Of a stretch of 64,000 bases of DNA, positions 6,939 through 29,990 are shown one piece after another. The notes beneath the pieces were generated by a model that was given only the letters and a program-made list of their open reading frames with translations, made no database searches and was not told the DNA's origin. Source of the DNA: Amniculibacterium aquaticum (GTDB lineage: Bacteria > Bacteroidota > Bacteroidia > Flavobacteriales > Weeksellaceae); assembly GCF_003852705.1 (NCBI RefSeq), contig NZ_REFA01000002.1, positions 62,001 to 126,000 on the forward strand. The letters run 5' to 3'. The position numbers and the translations under genes are program-made. The number at the start of each line of letters is the position of its first letter. Positions within the stretch are counted from its first letter, which is position 1.

Positions 6939-6973
6939 GAAGCATCAAGATTGATCTTATTTTCAAAATTCCA

Positions 6974-7048
6974 CCGGCTGTACGCTGTATCTTTTGTGCC
7001 CAGGCTTTTCCCTTCGCCTACAAAAGGATGCCGCTTCCATCCGGGCTA
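6974..7048 (-). ncRNA. structured intergenic element E1, 3' of uvrC
   Basis: Read on the minus strand, it starts AGCCCGGATGGAAGCGGCAT, has CTTTTGT, a variable 25-nt centre, ACAAAAG and an end with GCG/GCCGG. The two arms form a long imperfect hairpin (6974-6998 with 7020-7045). The same architecture recurs at 15145-15232 (E2). Both copies sit just downstream of a gene on the same strand. From memory, similar AGCCCGGATGGAAGCGG elements are frequent in Flavobacteriia genomes; their function is unknown to me. Confidence 0.5.
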
Positions 7049-7144
7049 GATTCAAAAGTCGAGATTCTTTCAGATTTCCTATTGATGAAAATGTGTCAAA
7101 AAAAAGTTGCAGAAAAAATGTAATTTTCTGTTCGTGGGAAAAAT

Positions 7145-16206: not shown

Positions 16207-16390
16207 AATTTTTCTTAATTGATTGCACATTAGACGCTATCGTTTATTCCCAAAAAATGATTTAAAAACACATGGAAATCAACCTTTTTATTGAGGTGAA
16301 AAAGCATGATTAAGAAAAAGGAATTGAAAAAATCAAAGGGTTCAGTTTTCTTATTTAAATCAAAATTTATGCAAAAAAGCGATAAAGTTT

Positions 16391-16463
16391 GGATCTAAAT
16401 AATCAACTATTTGTGGTAGTGGGTAGAAACGCTCAACCGTATTATGAGCTTATATCTATATCC
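16391..16463 (-). promoter_or_regulatory. purine riboswitch aptamer (adenine type)
   Basis: On the minus strand the aptamer has P1 (GGATATAGATA with TATTTAGATCC), J1/2 TATAA-like, P2 GCTCA/TTGAGC closing L2 TAATACGG, the near-invariant J2/3 GTTTCTACC, P3 closing L3 CCACAAA, and J3/1 ATTAT. The base corresponding to position 74 is U, which specifies adenine; guanine aptamers have C. It aligns without large gaps to the Vibrio add aptamer as I remember it. It lies in the ~270-nt leader of the EamA exporter gene. No clear expression platform is visible in the 184 nt that follow. Confidence 0.88.
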
Positions 16464-16474
16464 GAAATCGAGGG

Positions 16475-16482
16475 CAAATTTA
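16475..16482 (-). promoter_or_regulatory. -7 box for the riboswitch-exporter transcript
   Basis: TAAATTTG on the minus strand (16482 to 16475), 11 bp upstream of aptamer P1. No obvious -33 TTG. Confidence 0.55.
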
Positions 16483-19353: not shown

Positions 19354-19403
19354 AAATACTAAAAAACTCCCTCAAAGTCTGTGCTTTGGGGGAGTTTTGT
19401 TGT
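19354..19403. terminator. bidirectional terminator, left copy of a 50-bp direct repeat
   Basis: Stem 19363-19377 with 19384-19398 (15 bp, one G-T pair) with an A-run before and a T-run after. All 50 bases recur at 29991-30040. The two copies bracket the whole CRISPR-Cas locus. Confidence 0.95.
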
Positions 19404-19405
19404 AT

Positions 19406-19465
19406 AAAAAATGCCCCGAAGATAGTCGAGGCTCTAAATGTTTTAGTTCACGAATTTATAATTGT
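19406..19465 (-). ncRNA. tracrRNA-tail paralogue 1 (no anti-repeat)
   Basis: 39 bases (19406-19444) are identical to the tail of the tracrRNA at 19611-19649, including the GCCTCGA/TCGGGGC terminator hairpin and T-run on the minus strand. Upstream on the minus strand is GTGAACTAAAACATTT instead of an anti-repeat. It shares GAACAC...GTGA(A/G)CTAAAACATT with the second paralogue. I see no consensus promoter. Confidence 0.6.
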
Positions 19466-19524
19466 TAATTTGTGTTCCTTAAATTGAAGATTCGACGAAG
19501 TCAAACATTCAAGATATGATTAAA

Positions 19525-19600
19525 CAAAAAAAGACGAGTTGCCCCGTCTTGAATGTTTTAGCTCACATACTTGTTTATTTTTAAATGGTGTTCGTGAAAC
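19525..19600 (-). ncRNA. tracrRNA-tail paralogue 2 (no anti-repeat)
   Basis: The minus strand reads GAACACC..., GTGAGCTAAAACATTC, then a different hairpin AAGACGGG-GCAA-CTCGTCTT and a T-run. It shares body and layout with paralogue 1 and the AAAACATT motif with the tracrRNA, but lacks pairing to the CRISPR repeat. Confidence 0.5.
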
Positions 19601-19607
19601 ATTTAGC

Positions 19608-19690
19608 AAAAAAAAATGCCCCGAAGATAGTCGAGGCTCTAAATGTTTTCACAACGGAATAATCCTTATTGTGAATTGCTTTCAATATGA
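19608..19690 (-). ncRNA. tracrRNA
   Basis: The minus strand starts with the anti-repeat TTGAAAGCAATTCACAA (19685 to 19669), complementary to the 5' part of the crRNA repeat. ATAAGGATTATTCCG, a TTGTGAAAACATTTAGA linker and a 7-bp terminal hairpin (GCCTCGA/TCGGGGC) with at least eight T follow. Length is about 80 nt. The layout matches known tracrRNAs (anti-repeat, AAGGnnnnnCCG nexus-like hairpin, terminator). A perfect -7 box lies just upstream. It fixes crRNA transcription to the minus strand. Confidence 0.9.
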
Positions 19691-19743: not shown

Positions 19744-19786
19744 AAAATTATTGTCTATTTTTAAAAAAAAATAAAAACATTTGATA

Positions 19787-22700
19787 ATGGCAAAAAAAAT
19801 ACTCGGATTAGACTTAGGAACAAATAGTATTGGGTGGGCGTACGTAACCGAAGGAGAAACACAAAATGAATCAGAAATAAAGCAGATAGGTGTTCGTGTT
19901 AATCCATTAACAGTTGATGAGCAAACAAACTTTGAAAAAGGTAAGTCAATTACAACCAATGCAGATAGAACGCTAAAACGCGGAGCAAGAAGGAATTTAG
20001 ACCGTTATCAATTGCGTAGAGAAAATTTGTTAGAAGTACTAACCAAAGCAAATATTATTAATGCAACTGCCAAATTATGTGAAGATGGCAAACAAACCAC
20101 TTTTCAAACTTGGGAATTGAGAGCGAAAGCAGCTTCAGAAAAAATTGAACTCAATGAATTTGCACGAGTACTTTTGGCTATCAATAAAAAACGTGGTTAT
20201 AAAAGTAGTCGTAAAGCAAAGAACAGTGAAGAAGGTCAAGCCATTGATGGAATGGGAGTAGCAAAAAAACTATATGAAGAAAATCTTACTCCTGGACAGT
20301 TGGTATATCAAAATTATGAAAAAGGAATTAAAACTATTCCCGATTTTTATCGCTCCGATTTGCAAAGTGAATTTGACAAGGTTTGGAACTTTCAAAAACA
20401 ATTTCATCCTGAAATTCTAACAGACGAATTTTACAAAGAATTGCAAGGCAAAGGTCAAAAAGCAACTTCTGCATTGTTTTGGACAAAATACCAATTCAAT
20501 ACCGCTGACATAAAAGATTTCGAGGATAGTTTTAAAAATCAATTCGCAGCAAAATTTGATACTAGAACCTTAAAGAAAATTCAAGCTTACCAATGGCGAA
20601 GTGAGGCAGTAAGTACGCAATTAGAGAAAGAACAAATGGCTTATGTGCTTACTGAAATAAACAATAATCTCAACAATTCAAGTGGTTACTTGGGTGCTAT
20701 TTCAGACCGAAGTAAAGAATTATTTTTCAATCAAGAAACGGTTGGACAAAATCAATTCAATCAGTTGCTGAAAAACAGACATACAGCTCTTAAAAACCAA
20801 GTTTTTTACCGACAAGATTATTTAGATGAGTTTGAAAAGATATGGACTACACAAGCAAAATATCATGCTCAACTCACTGATAAACTAAAAGAAGAAATTC
20901 GGGATATTGTTATTTTCTATCAACGCAAGCTTAAATCACAAAAAGGTTTAATCAGTTTTTGTGAATTTGAAAGCAAAGAAATCGAGAAAGATGGTAAAAA
21001 GAAAACGGTTGGAATGCGTGTGGCTCCGAAATCTTCGCCTTTGTTTCAGGAGTTTAAGATTTGGCAAATTCTACATAATGTTTTAGTGAAAAAAGCAGGA
21101 AGTAAAAAGAGAAGCGTTAAAAAAGAAAATCAACCCTCCTTATTTGAAGAAGAAAAAGAAATTTTTGAATTAGACTTAGCTGCTAAAAATCAAGTTTTTG
21201 AAGAACTAAACATTAAAGGAGGTTTAAAAGCCAATCAAATTATTGAAATTTTAGGCTATAAACCTAAAGATTGGGAAATGAACTACGCCCAATTAGAAGG
21301 GAATCGTACCAATCAAGCTTTATACAATGCTTATCTTAAAATTTTAGAAAGAGAAGGTTACAATGAAGATTTATTAAAGTTATCTGATAAAGATGAAATC
21401 AATGTCAATGAGCTAAAAACACCGGCTTCTGAAATAAAAGCAATGGTAAAAGCCATTTTTGAAGTATTGGAAATTAATACAGAAATTTTAGAGTTTAATG
21501 CAGAATTGGATGGTAAAGATTTTGAAAACCAAGCCTCTTATCAATTTTGGCATTTACTTTATTCTGCAGAAGATGATACCAAAAAATACAGCCAAGAAGA
21601 TGTTTTACTTTACGGAAACGATAATATCGGACTAAAAAAACAGCTCTGTTCTAAATTTGGTTTCAAGCCAGACCACGCGAAAATATTGGCTAATGTGGTA
21701 TTTCAAGATGATTATGGAAGCCTTTCTACCAAAGCCATGCGAAAGATTTATCCGTATATCAAAGAAAATAAATACAGCGAAGCGTGTGCTTATGTTTCTA
21801 CTGATTATAGTAAATTATCCCAAAGAGAGGATGATATTTACGATAAATTAGCCAAGAACTATCGTCACTCAAAATGGGTTGATAAAACTGAAAATGAAAC
21901 CAGAGCATTAAAATCCAAATTGGATTTATTGCCTAAAAACAGCTTGCGTAATCCGGTAGTAGAAAAAATTCTCAATCAAATGGCAAATGTGGTAAACACC
22001 TTGATTGACAAAGAGAATGATCAATTAAAATCGGAAGGCAAAGAACCTAATTTCCAGTTTGATGAAATACGAATTGAATTGGCTCGTGAATTAAAGAAAA
22101 ATGCTGCCGAAAGAGCTGAAATGACGACCAATATCAATACGGCAAAAACAGCTCACGAGAAAATAGTTAAACTTTTACAAGCAGAATTTGGATTAAAAAA
22201 TCCAACTCGGAATGATATTGTTCGCTATAAATTGTATGAAGAATTAAAAAACAACGGCTACAAAGATTTATACACCGATACTTACATCCCAAGGGAAATT
22301 TTGTTTAGTAAACAGGTGGACATTGAACACATTATTCCACAATCTCGTTTATTTGATGATAGTTTCTCTAATAAAACCGTAGTATATCGAAAAGATAATT
22401 TGGATAAAGGAAATCAAACTGCTATTGAATACATTGAAAATAAATTTGGTGAAACTGGATTAATTTCTTTCCAAGAAAGAATTGAAGCTCTTCATAAGAT
22501 GTGGAACAAAAACAATCCTGAAAATGGTATTACAAAAGCAAAATATCAAAAATTACTAAAACGTTCTTCTGAAATTGGCGAAGGATTTATTGAGCGAGAT
22601 TTGCGAGATAGCCAATACATTGCAAAAAAAGCAAAAGAAATGTTGTTTGGTATTACCCGTTCTGTGGTTTCTACTTCGGGACAAATTACAGATAGGCTGC

Positions 22701-24241
22701 GAGAAGATTGGGATTTGGTAAATATTATGAAAGAACTCAACTTGCCAAAATACCGAGCATTAGGCTTGACCGAAATGGAAGAACGAAAATATGGGCAAAA
22801 GGTTGAAGTGATTAAAGATTGGACCAAGCGAAATGACCACCGCCATCACGCAATGGATGCTTTGACTATTGCTTTTACCAAAAGAAGTTTTATCCAATAT
22901 TTGAATAACTTGAATGCCCGAAGAAATGAGAAATCGGATGATACGATTAGTAATTCTAAAGGTAGAACCAGTATGGATACGTCTAACCTAAAATTATCAA
23001 CTCGTGATGTTTTAGGTATTGAAGAGAAAGAAACAATTATTAGAACTGATGACCAAGGCAATAAAAAACGAGTATTCAAAGAACCGATTACCAATTTCCG
23101 CCAAGTAGCCAAAGAGCATTTGGAAAATGTAATTGTATCCCACAAAGCTAAAAATAAAGTAGTTACAAAAAACAAGAATAAAGTAAGAGGTTCAAATAAA
23201 GTGCAAGAAGCATTAACTCCTCGAGGGCAATTACACAAAGAAACCGTTTATGGCAAATACCAGTATTACGTACAAAAAGAAGAAAAAGTAGGTGCTAAAT
23301 TTGATAAAGAAACCATTGATAAAGTAGGTAATCCTTTATACAAAAAACTTCTATTGCAACGCTTAGAAGAATACGGCAACGATTCTAAAAAAGCATTTAC
23401 AGGAAAAAATACCCTAGAGAAAAATCCAATTTACTTAAATGTAGAAAAAACAGAAGTGCTGCCTGAAAAAGTAAAATTGGTTTGGTTGGAAGAGGATTAT
23501 TCTATTCGTAAAGATGTAACACCAGATTTGAAAATTGACAAAGTAATTGACAAGGGTGTGAGAACAGTTTTGGAAAATCGTTTGAAAGAATTTGGAGGAG
23601 ATGCAAAAAAAGCCTTCTCTGATTTAGATAAAAATCCTATTTGGCTCAACAAAGAAAAAGGAATTGCTATTAAAAGAGTTACCATAAGCGGTGTAAGTAA
23701 TGCCGAAGCTTTGCATTACAAAAAAGACCATTTTGGAAAACCAATTTTAGATGCAAATGGCAATAAAATTGCGGTTGATTATGTACAAACCGGCAATAAC
23801 CACCATGTGGCGGTGTACAGAGATGAAAAAGGAAATTTACAGGAAAGAGTTGTATCTTTGTTTGAAGCAGTGGCTCGAGTGAATTTAGGATTACCCATTA
23901 TTGATAAAACCTACAAACAAAGTGAAGGTTGGCAGTTTTTATTTACCATGAAACAAAATGAACTCTTTGTTTTCCCCAATGAAAAAACTGGTTTTAATCC
24001 TGCAGATATAGATTTATTAGATCCTAAAAACAAAAAGCTGATTAGCCCAAATTTATTTAGGGTGCAGAAAATTGCAAATAAAAATTATTTCTTTAGACAT
24101 CATTTAGAGACTACTGTAGATACTAACCCAGCATTAAAAGATGTAACATATAAGCCTCAGTTAGGATTAAATGCTATTGAAGGAATAATCAAAGTTCGCA
24201 CCAATCATTTGGGAGATATTATTGGGGTGGGAGAGTATTAA
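19787..24241 (+). CDS. cas9: CRISPR-associated endonuclease Cas9 (type II-C)
   Basis: The RNA-guided DNA endonuclease of the locus. 1,484 aa from the ATG at 19787, among the long Cas9s found in Bacteroidota; classical II-C enzymes are nearer 1,000-1,100. RuvC-I begins KKILGLDLGTNSIGWAY with Asp9. The arginine-rich bridge helix is DRTLKRGARRNLDRYQLRR (~65-83). RuvC-II is EIRIELARELKK with Glu764. The HNH domain is VDIEHIIPQSRLFDDSFSNK with catalytic His848. RuvC-III is DHRHHAMDALTIA with His1021 and Asp1024. All catalytic residues are present and the frame is unbroken, so it should be active. Confidence 0.98.
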   Translation: MAKKILGLDLGTNSIGWAYVTEGETQNESEIKQIGVRVNPLTVDEQTNFEKGKSITTNADRTLKRGARRNLDRYQLRRENLLEVLTKANIINATAKLCEDGKQTTFQTWELRAKAASEKIELNEFARVLLAINKKRGYKSSRKAKNSEEGQAIDGMGVAKKLYEENLTPGQLVYQNYEKGIKTIPDFYRSDLQSEFDKVWNFQKQFHPEILTDEFYKELQGKGQKATSALFWTKYQFNTADIKDFEDSFKNQFAAKFDTRTLKKIQAYQWRSEAVSTQLEKEQMAYVLTEINNNLNNSSGYLGAISDRSKELFFNQETVGQNQFNQLLKNRHTALKNQVFYRQDYLDEFEKIWTTQAKYHAQLTDKLKEEIRDIVIFYQRKLKSQKGLISFCEFESKEIEKDGKKKTVGMRVAPKSSPLFQEFKIWQILHNVLVKKAGSKKRSVKKENQPSLFEEEKEIFELDLAAKNQVFEELNIKGGLKANQIIEILGYKPKDWEMNYAQLEGNRTNQALYNAYLKILEREGYNEDLLKLSDKDEINVNELKTPASEIKAMVKAIFEVLEINTEILEFNAELDGKDFENQASYQFWHLLYSAEDDTKKYSQEDVLLYGNDNIGLKKQLCSKFGFKPDHAKILANVVFQDDYGSLSTKAMRKIYPYIKENKYSEACAYVSTDYSKLSQREDDIYDKLAKNYRHSKWVDKTENETRALKSKLDLLPKNSLRNPVVEKILNQMANVVNTLIDKENDQLKSEGKEPNFQFDEIRIELARELKKNAAERAEMTTNINTAKTAHEKIVKLLQAEFGLKNPTRNDIVRYKLYEELKNNGYKDLYTDTYIPREILFSKQVDIEHIIPQSRLFDDSFSNKTVVYRKDNLDKGNQTAIEYIENKFGETGLISFQERIEALHKMWNKNNPENGITKAKYQKLLKRSSEIGEGFIERDLRDSQYIAKKAKEMLFGITRSVVSTSGQITDRLREDWDLVNIMKELNLPKYRALGLTEMEERKYGQKVEVIKDWTKRNDHRHHAMDALTIAFTKRSFIQYLNNLNARRNEKSDDTISNSKGRTSMDTSNLKLSTRDVLGIEEKETIIRTDDQGNKKRVFKEPITNFRQVAKEHLENVIVSHKAKNKVVTKNKNKVRGSNKVQEALTPRGQLHKETVYGKYQYYVQKEEKVGAKFDKETIDKVGNPLYKKLLLQRLEEYGNDSKKAFTGKNTLEKNPIYLNVEKTEVLPEKVKLVWLEEDYSIRKDVTPDLKIDKVIDKGVRTVLENRLKEFGGDAKKAFSDLDKNPIWLNKEKGIAIKRVTISGVSNAEALHYKKDHFGKPILDANGNKIAVDYVQTGNNHHVAVYRDEKGNLQERVVSLFEAVARVNLGLPIIDKTYKQSEGWQFLFTMKQNELFVFPNEKTGFNPADIDLLDPKNKKLISPNLFRVQKIANKNYFFRHHLETTVDTNPALKDVTYKPQLGLNAIEGIIKVRTNHLGDIIGVGEY

Positions 24242-24926: not shown

Positions 24927-26155
<1,229 letters not shown>

Positions 26156-26212
26156 AATCTTAAAAATGATTGTTTTAAAGAGAAACGGAATCAAAATTAT
26201 CCAACTCTTTTC

Positions 26213-26261
26213 TTATCAAGAATTCAGCGAAAAGAAGGAAAGAAGCCAAAGCAATTCATAA
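26213..26261 (+). repeat. half-copy of the repeat-splitting element, downstream of cas2
   Basis: TATCAAGAATTCAGCGAAAAG, a short spacer, then CCAAAGCAATTCATAAG match the right half of the elements at 27573-27662 and 29496-29585, including the CRISPR-repeat-like AAAGCAATTCA end. The left half is missing. Confidence 0.5.
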
Positions 26262-26349
26262 GTGTAGGGAATTTTGTAGTTACATACCTTTTAAGTTAGA
26301 TGTTTTCTTTTCTAATTCATCTTATATTATTTAGGTAATTAAAAAAATG

Positions 26350-26438
26350 TATATTCGTAAAGGGAAAGTGAGAAGGTTCTAATCCAACCAGCACTCAGAC
26401 TTCCTATTAAGGCAGAGAAATAAAACTCTGTCTTTTTT
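26350..26438 (+). ncRNA. small RNA candidate K (promoter, bulged stem, terminator)
   Basis: TATATTCG (26350-26357, one mismatch from TAnnTTTG) is followed by a ~78-nt transcript. It forms a bulged stem (AAGTGAG with CTC-AG-ACTT), a 21-nt apical loop and a 9-bp terminator stem (26409-26417 with 26426-26434) with six T. Its promoter and layout resemble candidates M and R nearby. No coding frame. Confidence 0.55.
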
Positions 26439-26464
26439 ACGAAGTTTAAAAATAGTTATACGAT

Positions 26465-26524
26465 AATGAAATACTGACTATGGCGTCCCTAAACAAGATA
26501 GTCTATGATATATAGCGTATTAAA
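26465..26524 (+). ncRNA. decayed copy (L) of small RNA R
   Basis: About 59 bases match small RNA R (27276-27335, opposite strand) at roughly three quarters of positions without gaps, mostly by transitions. The promoter box is degraded and changes break pairing in both inner stems, so I read it as a relic. Confidence 0.5.
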
Positions 26525-26636
26525 GAAGCTGGCCAAAAGGACAGCTTCTTCTTGTAACCAAGCATTGGAAGAGGAGGATAAGTCCGCCCAATGTCGCTGT
26601 TATTATACAAATATACAAAACTTATTGAGGACCAAA
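26521..26636 (-). ncRNA. small RNA candidate M
   Basis: On the minus strand TTTG (26636-26633), a 17-nt spacer and TATATTTG (26615-26608) form a consensus Bacteroidota promoter. The ~80-nt RNA (26602 to 26521) folds as TAAC/GTTA, an internal loop, CATTGG/CCAATG and a 19-nt apical loop containing TCCTCCTC. It ends in a strong 9-bp hairpin AAGAAGCTG/CAGCTTCTT with a weak T-run. Confidence 0.6.
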
Positions 26637-26800
26637 TAGGTATTATTTGATAGTTGCGAAAATGAAAATAAACCATCAAAGAAGTTCTTCAAACATCATA
26701 TTTTAAAAAAAGAAGCTGATAAAAGATATAAATATAGTTTAGAATTAAACAGCCAGATGAAATTTGGTTAAATATTTTGGATAATAAAACTAAAACATAC

Positions 26801-26998
26801 ATGAAAAACTACGAAAGAGGTGTGTTAAAAATAGTTGTAAATAAAGACAATGTAGCTGAAAGTTTTTATTTTATTGAAAAGAATGATCCATCACTAAACA
26901 ATAAAATTGGCCAAATAAGGGATCTGTTCCAAAACTTGGGGGAAAAAGAATTTTCTTCATTAGTTACTACTTGTCACATAGAAAATAGGATATATTAA
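26801..26998 (+). CDS. small hypothetical ORF
   Basis: 65 aa from ATG (MKNYERGVLKIVVNKDNVAE...). No recognised domain, signal peptide or consensus promoter box. It lies between small-RNA candidates M and R and may be a gene relic. Confidence 0.25.
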   Translation: MKNYERGVLKIVVNKDNVAESFYFIEKNDPSLNNKIGQIRDLFQNLGEKEFSSLVTTCHIENRIY

Positions 26999-27013
26999 TT
27001 AGATGTATAATTC

Positions 27014-27037
27014 AGCCCGCGGTTTAAACCGCGGGCT
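27014..27037. repeat. perfect 24-bp GC-rich palindrome
   Basis: AGCCCGCGGTTT followed by its exact complement. From memory, similar palindromes are dispersed in Bacteroidota intergenic regions, so it is REP-like. Confidence 0.7.
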
Positions 27038-27244
27038 ATGGAGCAAAATTGTTTTTGTTTGGGTTGAGAAAAAGAATTTTATCCGATAAGATATGTTGGG
27101 TTAAAAGAAGGGTATTAAAATTTCATATTTTGACAGCAAAAATAATTTATATTCTCCAAGAATTTTTATTTGATTACTTTTGTTTAATCCCCCAAGTTTT
27201 GACCTTGATCCCAAATAAGAAAAGGAATACTAATGTTTAGAAAC

Positions 27245-27369
27245 TAAAAAACGAACCATTATGGTTCGTTTCTATTAATGCGCTACATGTTATAGACCGA
27301 TCTGTTGAGGAACGCCATAACCAGCACTTCATTAACATTACAAATATACAAAATTTTTTAATTACCAAA
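27245..27369 (-). ncRNA. small RNA candidate R
   Basis: Minus strand: TTTG (27369-27366), 17-nt spacer, TATATTTG (27348-27341), then a ~90-nt RNA (27335 to 27245). It folds as TTAAT/ATTAA, GAA bulge, GTGCT/AGCGC, internal loop, GTTATGG/CTATAAC and a 19-nt apical loop. A separate terminator hairpin AAACGAACC/GGTTCGTTT with six T follows. Promoter, fold and terminator are all intact. There is no coding potential. Confidence 0.7.
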
Positions 27370-27377
27370 TAACACAC

Positions 27378-27538
27378 GAGGAATTTTATAAACAAATCGA
27401 AAAAAAAGCATCCGAGCTTAAAAATTATGCGACGACAAGATTTTCTTCAAAAGCCAGAAACATTGCTTTGCGGTTCATCAACGGTAATTTTAGAGCTCAA
27501 GGTTTTCAAGGAAACACTTTTAAAAGATGGAAACCTAA
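27378..27538 (+). pseudogene. phage morphogenesis gene fragment
   Basis: The open frame from GAG at 27378 reads EEFYKQIEKKASELKNYATT..., then ALRFINGNFRAQGFQGNTF and KRWKPK. This resembles the N-terminal half of phage virion-morphogenesis or tail-completion proteins common in Bacteroidota prophages. There is no start codon, and the frame runs into the degenerate CRISPR repeat at 27539, ending at 27599. Confidence 0.5.
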
Positions 27539-27672
27539 GTTACGAGACATATCAAATTTAAAAATTTTGAAATCCTTGATGCATGAATTGATCTTATAGG
27601 TAGAAATCTAATTTCATCAAGGATTCAGCGAAAAGCGATGGAAAAGTTTGGGCTGAGCTAAAGCAATTCATC
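27539..27672 (-). repeat. degenerate CRISPR repeat split by an ~90-bp element (left side of array)
   Basis: 27539-27572 matches the first 34 bases of the CRISPR repeat with a few changes. An inserted element (27573-27662) follows, then AAAGCAATTCA. The element starts with an 11-bp stem AATCCTTGATG/CATCAAGGATT and has a second CAGC/GCTG hairpin. The break point in the repeat is the same as in the split repeat at 29462. Confidence 0.75.
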
Positions 27673-27740: not shown

Positions 27741-27786
27741 AAAAAAATCAAATCAATTAACTGAATTTCAGTTAATTGATTTGATT
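27741..27786 (-). terminator. terminator of the CRISPR array transcript
   Basis: 20-bp arms (27746-27765 with 27767-27786) pair perfectly; on the minus strand the hairpin is followed by seven T. It ends 3 bp before the first array repeat, supporting right-to-left crRNA transcription. Confidence 0.85.
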
Positions 27787-29461: not shown

Positions 29462-29597
29462 GTTGCGACACATCGCGAATTTAAAAATTTTGAAATCCTT
29501 GATGCTTGAATTGATTTTATAGGCAGAAATCTAATTATATCAAGGATTCAGCGAAAAGCAGTGGGAAAGAAAAGGCTGAGCTAAAGCAATTCACAAC
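29462..29597 (-). repeat. last CRISPR repeat split by a 90-bp insertion
   Basis: Bases 1-34 of the repeat (29462-29495), an insertion (29496-29585), then the remaining GCAATTCACAAC. AAA occurs at both junctions, consistent with a 3-bp target duplication around an 87-bp element. The insert is the same element as at 27573-27662, with an AATCCTTGAT/ATCAAGGATT stem. In crRNA sense this is the leader-proximal repeat. Confidence 0.85.
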
Positions 29598-29990
29598 TTG
29601 GTTTGTAGACGGCACGCCAAATAAGAATATAACAACGCAATGAGCTGATAAGAGCTTTTTTCTCTCAACTGGAGAAAAAGAACCCCAATTGGTGTTTGTC
29701 GGTTCTTTTGGTAGAAACGGCAAATAAAAACTTTTCGTCATTGTCGGTAAACATCGTGTCAGCCATCCTTAACCACAACGGCATCTACAACGATCTGAAA
29801 GACCAACCAAAAATGCTAAGTTTGTCTGATGAGATATAGATAATAGTTGTATATTCGCAAGGTCAGACATACTTCTGTCGGGTGTTCCTCAGGGATGAAT
29901 TGTTTTAGAATTAATATTGTTTTTCGAATAAATTCTATTCTTAATCCTTAACATATCGATAGGTATTAATTCGCTATTGTAATGCAATCC
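29598..29990. other. leader-side region of the array, no gene recognised
   Basis: 393 bp of AT-rich sequence without a supported gene. A plus-strand frame reads SVNIVSAILNHNGIYNDLKD and may be a gene relic. TATATTCG at 29850-29857 and GTTCCTC at 29884 recall parts of small RNAs K and R. In crRNA sense this should be the leader. Confidence 0.4.

What the first reader, a model, noticed from the sequence alone, without database searches (positions are those of the whole stretch)
26281..27372. Cluster of look-alike small RNA genes between cas2 and the CRISPR array
Seen directly: three non-coding units (K 26350-26438 plus; M 26636-26521 minus; R 27369-27245 minus) share a TATATTTG/TATATTCG -7 box. 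M and R also share TTTG with an identical 17-nt spacer. All three have a bulged stem closing a 19-21-nt apical loop, followed by a separate hairpin like a terminator. Primary sequences differ, loops most of all. Inference: a small RNA family with interchangeable loops (M has TCCTCCTC, R has GTTCCTC) carried by the CRISPR locus. It may be a target-recognising RNA set or a known family such as Flavo-1 that I cannot identify by eye.
Basis: partly seen in the sequence, partly recalled or inferred. Interest (0 to 1): 0.85.

Follow-up and report, generated by a model that had tools for sequence, protein, structure and literature searches.

The report
Phage toxin-linked RNA units beside CRISPR
The small RNA genes beside this CRISPR array are remnants of a virus of bacteria; in related viruses such RNAs sit next to an RNA-cutting toxin and are usually missing where the toxin's active site is lost, so they may act as RNA antidotes.

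Summary
R lies in the gap between broken Mu F-like and G-like genes; a fourth unit, N (26458-26523 +), is a close relative of R. Part of the cas2-to-array stretch is a prophage relic. In related (pro)phages the same slot, antisense to the head genes, holds an RNA-like unit with a host-type promoter box (43 of 46 distinct gaps antisense, 0 of 46 sense). It follows a MuF protein ending in a PBECR2 (colicin D-like RNase) domain and tracks that domain's His/Arg motif: gap of 60 nt or more in 56 of 56 loci with the motif, no such gap in 19 of 23 without; independent tree contrasts 6-7 to 0. R-type stems covary around a conserved loop; Rfam has no match. Best reading: immunity (antitoxin) RNAs for virion-borne PBECR2 RNases; here relic or orphan copies. 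The association is shown; expression, toxicity and neutralisation are inferred. K and M are only weakly tied to the family. Anticodon mimicry was tested and is not generally supported.

The parts
27274..27348 (-). Unit R: -7 box 27348-27341, conserved structured RNA 27340-27274
27246..27273 (-). Hairpin and T-run after R (terminator-like)
   Evidence: sequence, fold
26458..26523 (+).
26523..26550 (.). Hairpin shared by N (+) and M (-), weak T-runs
26524..26615 (-). Unit M: -7 box 26615-26608, RNA from about 26602; weak member
26350..26438 (+). Unit K: -7 box 26350-26357, stem-loop, hairpin plus T-run; weakest member
26613..26920 (+). Broken MuF toxin end (two frames: 26613-26762 and 26744-26920)
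   Evidence: tblastn
26920..27212 (.). MITE-like insertion in the MuF relic: inverted ends 26919-26943/27188-27212, AAATAAG on both sides by eye
27212..27241 (+). Last MuF codons (QIRKGILMFR), weak match (E 0.09)
27378..27548 (+). First part of a Mu G-like gene (residues 4-60, 68% identity)

Best explanation
The units come from Mu-like (pro)phages. Such phages carry a MuF head protein (alone or fused to the portal) whose C-terminal PBECR2 domain is a predicted colicin D-like RNase, proposed in the literature to be injected with the DNA. Directly downstream, on the opposite strand, lies a short structured RNA unit with its own host-type promoter, so it could be made in a lysogen without late transcription. 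I propose that the RNA is the immunity factor: it protects the producing or lysogenic cell, most likely by binding the PBECR2 domain (type III-like), less likely by pairing with the F-G mRNA (type I-like). Where the active site is lost the RNA is lost too. In this window the phage is decayed; R and N, and perhaps M and K, are relic or orphan copies. Shown: the slot, the promoter box, covariation in two RNA groups, the tie to catalytic residues. Inferred: expression, toxicity, neutralisation, delivery.
For: Slot: R homologues at 73%/70%, both between F and G and antisense. Spread: of 14 genome loci found with the G protein, 7 have the unit (L083, L085, L088, L091-L094), 1 an antisense ORF (L086), 5 no gap (L082, L084, L087, L089, L090), 1 (L095) is no MuF context; also viral contigs, a Porphyromonas phage and Flavobacterium phage fF4. 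Tie to catalysis: 80 loci, 79 with a measured gap: motif kept 56 of 56 with gap >=60 nt, motif lost 19 of 23 without. Independent contrasts 6-7 same way, 0 opposite, 2-3 no difference (p 0.016-0.031); with promoter box 7-8 to 0 (p 0.0078-0.0156). Near relatives: L118/L142-145 (His to Asn, gap 4-5) beside L110/L111/L113/L139/L140 (gap 130-154). Promoter box 43 of 46 antisense, 0 of 46 sense, 5.9 expected from shuffles. Covariation: R-type 8 pairs changed on both sides, shuffled 3.7, 0 of 500; second group 10 of 26 pairs. The active-site His was named beforehand in PMC5512222 section 19. Fold: colicin D first, Z 6.4.
Against: No expression, toxicity or binding data. Loci without the motif but with a gap: L228, L127, L128 (the last two seem filled by a plus-strand ORF, by eye) and L100 (the alignment shows His and Arg, my motif rule does not; under the Pfam cut-off). 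L129 (65% GC) had gap -4 under the first start estimate and 83 under the second. Terminator-like sites are not above shuffled (21 of 46 against 18.4). RNA groups differ so much that one family is not shown by sequence; two groups show little or no covariation. Loss of activity and of RNA could be one cassette event. Foldseek has no match at E <= 0.001 and Z is under 8. Near-copies remain in the 80 loci.
Confidence: 0.6

Rival explanations
1. Cis-antisense control: the unit is transcribed against the F-G late mRNA and lowers translation or stability of the toxin-bearing message (type I-like) or blocks late read-through in the lysogen.
For: Antisense position and own promoter box; tie to an intact toxin.
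Against: It covers the intercistronic gap rather than the F reading frame, and two groups show covarying structure that simple antisense would not need.
Confidence: 0.18
2. An RNA moron: an independent small RNA carried in a late-gene gap that regulates the host, lost together with the toxin by cassette exchange.
For: Own promoter, short gap, variable sequence.
Against: In L118/L142-145 the toxin domain is still there with a changed active site, yet the unit is gone; several independent contrasts.
Confidence: 0.12
3. Decoy of the nuclease's tRNA target: the loop imitates an anticodon loop, e.g. tRNA-Arg.
For: R-type phage RNAs share TTCCTAAAC with tRNA-Arg(CCU) (4 of the 7 RNAs with p <= 0.05); colicin D is known from memory to cut tRNA-Arg.
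Against: 38 of 45 RNAs show nothing above shuffles; the shared letters are not in a 7-nt loop closed by a 5-bp stem.
Confidence: 0.06
4. In this window the units are only decaying leftovers without function (compatible with the main explanation for the phages).
For: MuF and G are broken, a MITE-like element sits in MuF; N has a poor promoter box.
Against: R keeps promoter box, stems and terminator-like hairpin.
Confidence: 0.7

Closest known systems
Type III toxin-antitoxin systems (recalled)
   Same: An RNA would neutralise an RNase toxin.
   Different: The toxin is the end of a phage head protein; the RNA unit lies downstream on the opposite strand with its own promoter box.
MuF polymorphic toxins of temperate phages (PMC5576092, passages seen)
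   Same: MuF protein with a variable C-terminal toxin domain.
   Different: An RNA-like unit occupies the slot behind the toxin; the passages seen speak of no RNA immunity.
Prophage-encoded polymorphic toxin Bxa with two immunity proteins (PMC11699363, abstract and outline seen)
   Same: Prophage toxin of Bacteroides with cognate immunity.
   Different: Immunity there is by proteins.
PBECR2 domain (PF18810; PMC5512222, passages and section 19 read)
   Same: Same domain and active-site His.
   Different: Section 19 names no linked RNA.
Type I antisense antitoxins (recalled)
   Same: Antisense orientation beside a toxin gene.
   Different: Lies in the gap between two genes and shows covarying structure.

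Membership tests
PBECR2 on MuF | Pfam PF18810 and PF04233 above cut-off | tested here: met
   L012, L110, L121, L264; the window's own 73-aa fragment has no Pfam match
PBECR2 on MuF | active-site His and Ser/Thr | tested here: met
   24 aligned domains: H90 and R99 invariant, T149 nearly so; roles of His and Ser/Thr from PMC5512222
PBECR2 on MuF | RNase activity | not testable with these tools
   fold resembles colicin D, Z 6.4, rmsd 3.1 over 88 residues
Type III toxin-antitoxin | RNA neutralises the toxin by binding | not testable with these tools
   genetic association only
Type III toxin-antitoxin | tandem-repeat RNA upstream of the toxin, same strand (recalled) | tested here: not met
   unit is downstream and antisense; no tandem repeats seen by eye in the printed gaps
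Flavo-1 (RF01705) | model match at gathering score | tested here: not met
   none in 26281-27372; found at 6967-7051
Any Rfam 15 family | match at gathering score | tested here: not met
   window; 15 and 11 further loci gave one hit, RT-17 in L047 10942-11022, away from the F-G gap
tracrRNA | anti-repeat to the CRISPR repeat | tested here: not met
   best anti-repeat with a tail is at 19689-19670 (-), upstream of cas9; none of the listed repeat matches falls in K, M, N or R except a 15-nt AT-rich one in R's promoter

The most novel reading that the evidence does not exclude
The slot behind MuF toxins is an exchangeable RNA-immunity locus, with a different RNA for each injected nuclease; and the units beside this CRISPR array are a kept orphan island of RNA immunity that shields the host from nuclease-injecting phages.
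Probability: 0.12. Interest if true: 0.92.

Novelty: new variant of a known kind. Interest (0 to 1): 0.8.

Why it matters
Immunity to polymorphic toxins is known to me as protein-based. An RNA antidote to a virion-carried RNase would join toxin-antitoxin biology with phage-borne polymorphic toxins, add structured RNAs that Rfam 15 does not match, and suggest how a lysogen survives a toxin built into its own phage head. It gives direct predictions for many phages, some of them named records.

Tried and rejected
Flavo-1 and other Rfam families: no match at the units. CRISPR role: the tracrRNA-like sequence is upstream of cas9. tRNA anticodon mimicry: 45 RNAs against 28 distinct anticodon arms of the own genome (from 30 of 42 tRNA places), 40 shuffles each; 7 of 45 reach p <= 0.05, 4 of them the R-type lineage with tRNA-Arg(CCU); no general signal. 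Terminators: crude scan not above shuffled. CRISPR spacers: 22 spacers against the loci in the Python box gave only 15-16-nt matches (some loci were shadowed there by alignment rows of the same name). The K/M hairpin count used a register chosen by eye, so I do not lean on it; the model search without K and M is fairer and weak. R1 search of 320 genomes found only G180, G052 and the own genome (R, N), under strict filters, and missed G279, which has an R-like unit (L052), so it is not exhaustive. Two RNA groups gave little covariation. The INPHARED search with the R-type toxin end gave nothing; with the L121 end 12 records. PADLOC: no match for two MuF proteins and the PRiA4_ORF3-like protein.

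Print searches: (PMC open-licence papers only, listings). No title or abstract start in those lists names an RNA immunity factor for MuF or PBECR toxins; two searches returned no paper. Papers opened: PMC5512222 (passages, section 19), PMC5576092 (passages), PMC11699363 (outline, abstract).

Full report
What is there. The window holds a type II-C-like CRISPR-Cas locus: cas9 19781-24241, a PRiA4_ORF3-like gene, cas1, cas2 25817-26155 (Pfam run for cas2 and the PRiA4 gene; cas9 and cas1 named by eye) and 22 identical 46-nt repeats from 27790. A fourth, N (26458-26523 +), is 75% identical to R over 60 nt.

A prophage relic. A search of 320 genomes of the family with window 26262-27400 gave matches at E <= 0.01 in 157, mostly short. 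The long ones to R were G180 (73% over 147 nt) and G052 (70% over about 141 nt). In both the R-like stretch fills the gap between a MuF gene and a Mu G-like gene and points against them; for the G052 copy Pfam names Phage_Mu_F and PBECR2 in the first, Phage_tail_S in the second. The window itself has the MuF toxin end in two frames (26613-26920), a MITE-like insertion (26920-27212, inverted ends, target repeats by eye), a short weak match to the last MuF codons, R, and 57 codons of G. So R is in its phage slot; N and M lie left of the toxin relic, K further left.

The slot elsewhere. Loci came from the G protein, a promoter-loop pattern (two contigs) and PBECR2 ends (6 of 395 genomes of the class; viral contigs). 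From the loci held I kept reading frames of at least 100 codons with P[DSHNG]E[VILS]W near the end, and dropped exact repeats of a 320-nt key: 80 loci, near-copies remaining; one (L179) has no measured gap. G starts were re-estimated from homologues; this lengthened the gap of L058, L094, L105, L106, L112, L114, L115, L117, L119, L129, L134 and L178 relative. For L119 it stays negative (-4); for L129 it turns -4 into 83, which favours my reading and is uncertain.

Association. Motif kept: a His followed by one of TISVAL and an Arg 5-24 residues on; L092, whose His is one place off, was labelled by hand. Kept: 56 of 56 have a gap >= 60 nt, 53 of them with a TAnnTT[TC]G box antisense (no box: L199, L088, L133). 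Lost: 19 of 23 have no such gap; exceptions L228, L127, L128 and L100. L100 fails the rule although the alignment shows His and Arg, so it may be mislabelled. On a quick tree of the MuF part without the toxin end (78 rows), of 9 contrasts on supported branches 6-7 go the same way, 0 the opposite way, 2-3 do not differ (p 0.016-0.031); with the box required 7-8, 0 and 1-2 (p 0.0078-0.0156). Some long branches meet in this tree (L127/L128 with L133/L228). The clearest case is L118, L142-L145 (Asn in place of His, gap 4-5) beside L110, L111, L113, L139, L140 (His, gap 130-154). Domains that lost NPDEVW-like letters are under-sampled.

Promoter and structure. Of 46 distinct gaps of 60-260 nt with the motif kept, 43 have the box antisense, 0 sense; shuffles give 5.9. 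Of the 43, 41 start 11-42 nt into the stretch that begins 12 nt inside G, 2 at 73-74. Terminator-like sites were 21 against 18.4 shuffled. R-type set (R, N, L057, L103, L050, L080): 84.8% of cells paired, 8 pairs changed on both sides (shuffled mean 3.7, 0 of 500 as high), slid registers 34-49% paired; the structure was drawn from a fold of one member, which favours it over slid versions. Another group (L122, L178, L180, L188): 10 of 26 predicted pairs double-changed. Two further groups: 5 of 23 with a covariation term of +0.25, 3 of 26.

Toxin. AlphaFold2 on 24 aligned PBECR2 ends: mean pLDDT 84.5. Foldseek: no match at E <= 0.001; best a CdiA system chain 0.011, colicin D 0.068. VIA-align: colicin D Z 6.4, CdiA NC101 5.5, a sequence-specific ribonuclease end (3ao9, colicin E5 as I recall) 4.2; Z under 8 may be a common arrangement. 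[quoted passage not shown] The residue tested was therefore named before these data.

Other toxin ends. L047, L067, L077 and L078 have MuF without a PBECR2 match (L078 a sub-threshold CdiA_C match), and by eye an antisense promoter-like box and hairpin in the slot. L086 has an antisense 82-aa ORF there without a Pfam match. These are few and uncounted.

Mechanism. A unit that goes with an intact injected-type RNase and is gone with dead ones, separately promoted and, in two groups, structured, is best read as the cell's antidote to its own phage's toxin. Binding the domain is the step I prefer; antisense control is the rival. The target of the RNase is unknown; tRNA is suggested by the fold alone.

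K and M. A model of five phage RNAs (L058, L088, L105, L106, L107) ranks M first in the window (16.8 bits, E 0.018), just above an unrelated site (16.3 bits, E 0.025); N has E 2.3 and K E 3, among 16 hits with E up to 10. M is possible, K is open; both share the promoter type with R.

Not known. No transcript, toxicity or binding has been seen, and whether the units still do anything for this host cannot be told from sequence.

Noticed in passing
window 29462-29597, 27539-27671, 26203-26260: The last CRISPR repeat carries an insertion of about 86 nt; a decayed repeat left of the array carries a similar one, and a shortened copy follows cas2.
   Followed up: partly
window 27746-27786: Perfect 20-bp inverted repeat just before the first intact CRISPR repeat.
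   Followed up: no
window 19400-19690: tracrRNA-like locus (-) upstream of cas9, anti-repeat 19689-19670, with two decayed copies of its tail by eye near 19400-19450 and 19540-19580.
   Followed up: partly
window 29850-29905: TATATTCG box followed by GTGTTCCTCAGGGATG, like the loops of the units; perhaps a further decayed copy right of the array. The R1 and R2 model searches list no hit there.
   Followed up: partly
window 27014-27037: Short perfect palindrome inside the MITE-like insertion; similar stretches recur in G002 and G204.
   Followed up: no
window 6967-7051 and 16380-16477: Flavo-1 RNA and a purine riboswitch at gathering score.
   Followed up: no
L086:2230-2478 (-): Behind a MuF with a HEFGH motif (by eye) the slot holds an antisense 82-aa ORF, perhaps a protein immunity gene; a 58-aa ORF overlaps on the other strand.
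   Followed up: partly
L264:2930-3183: Porphyromonas phage record: the slot is 254 nt long with an antisense promoter-like box; the record annotates a small plus-strand hypothetical gene there.
   Followed up: partly
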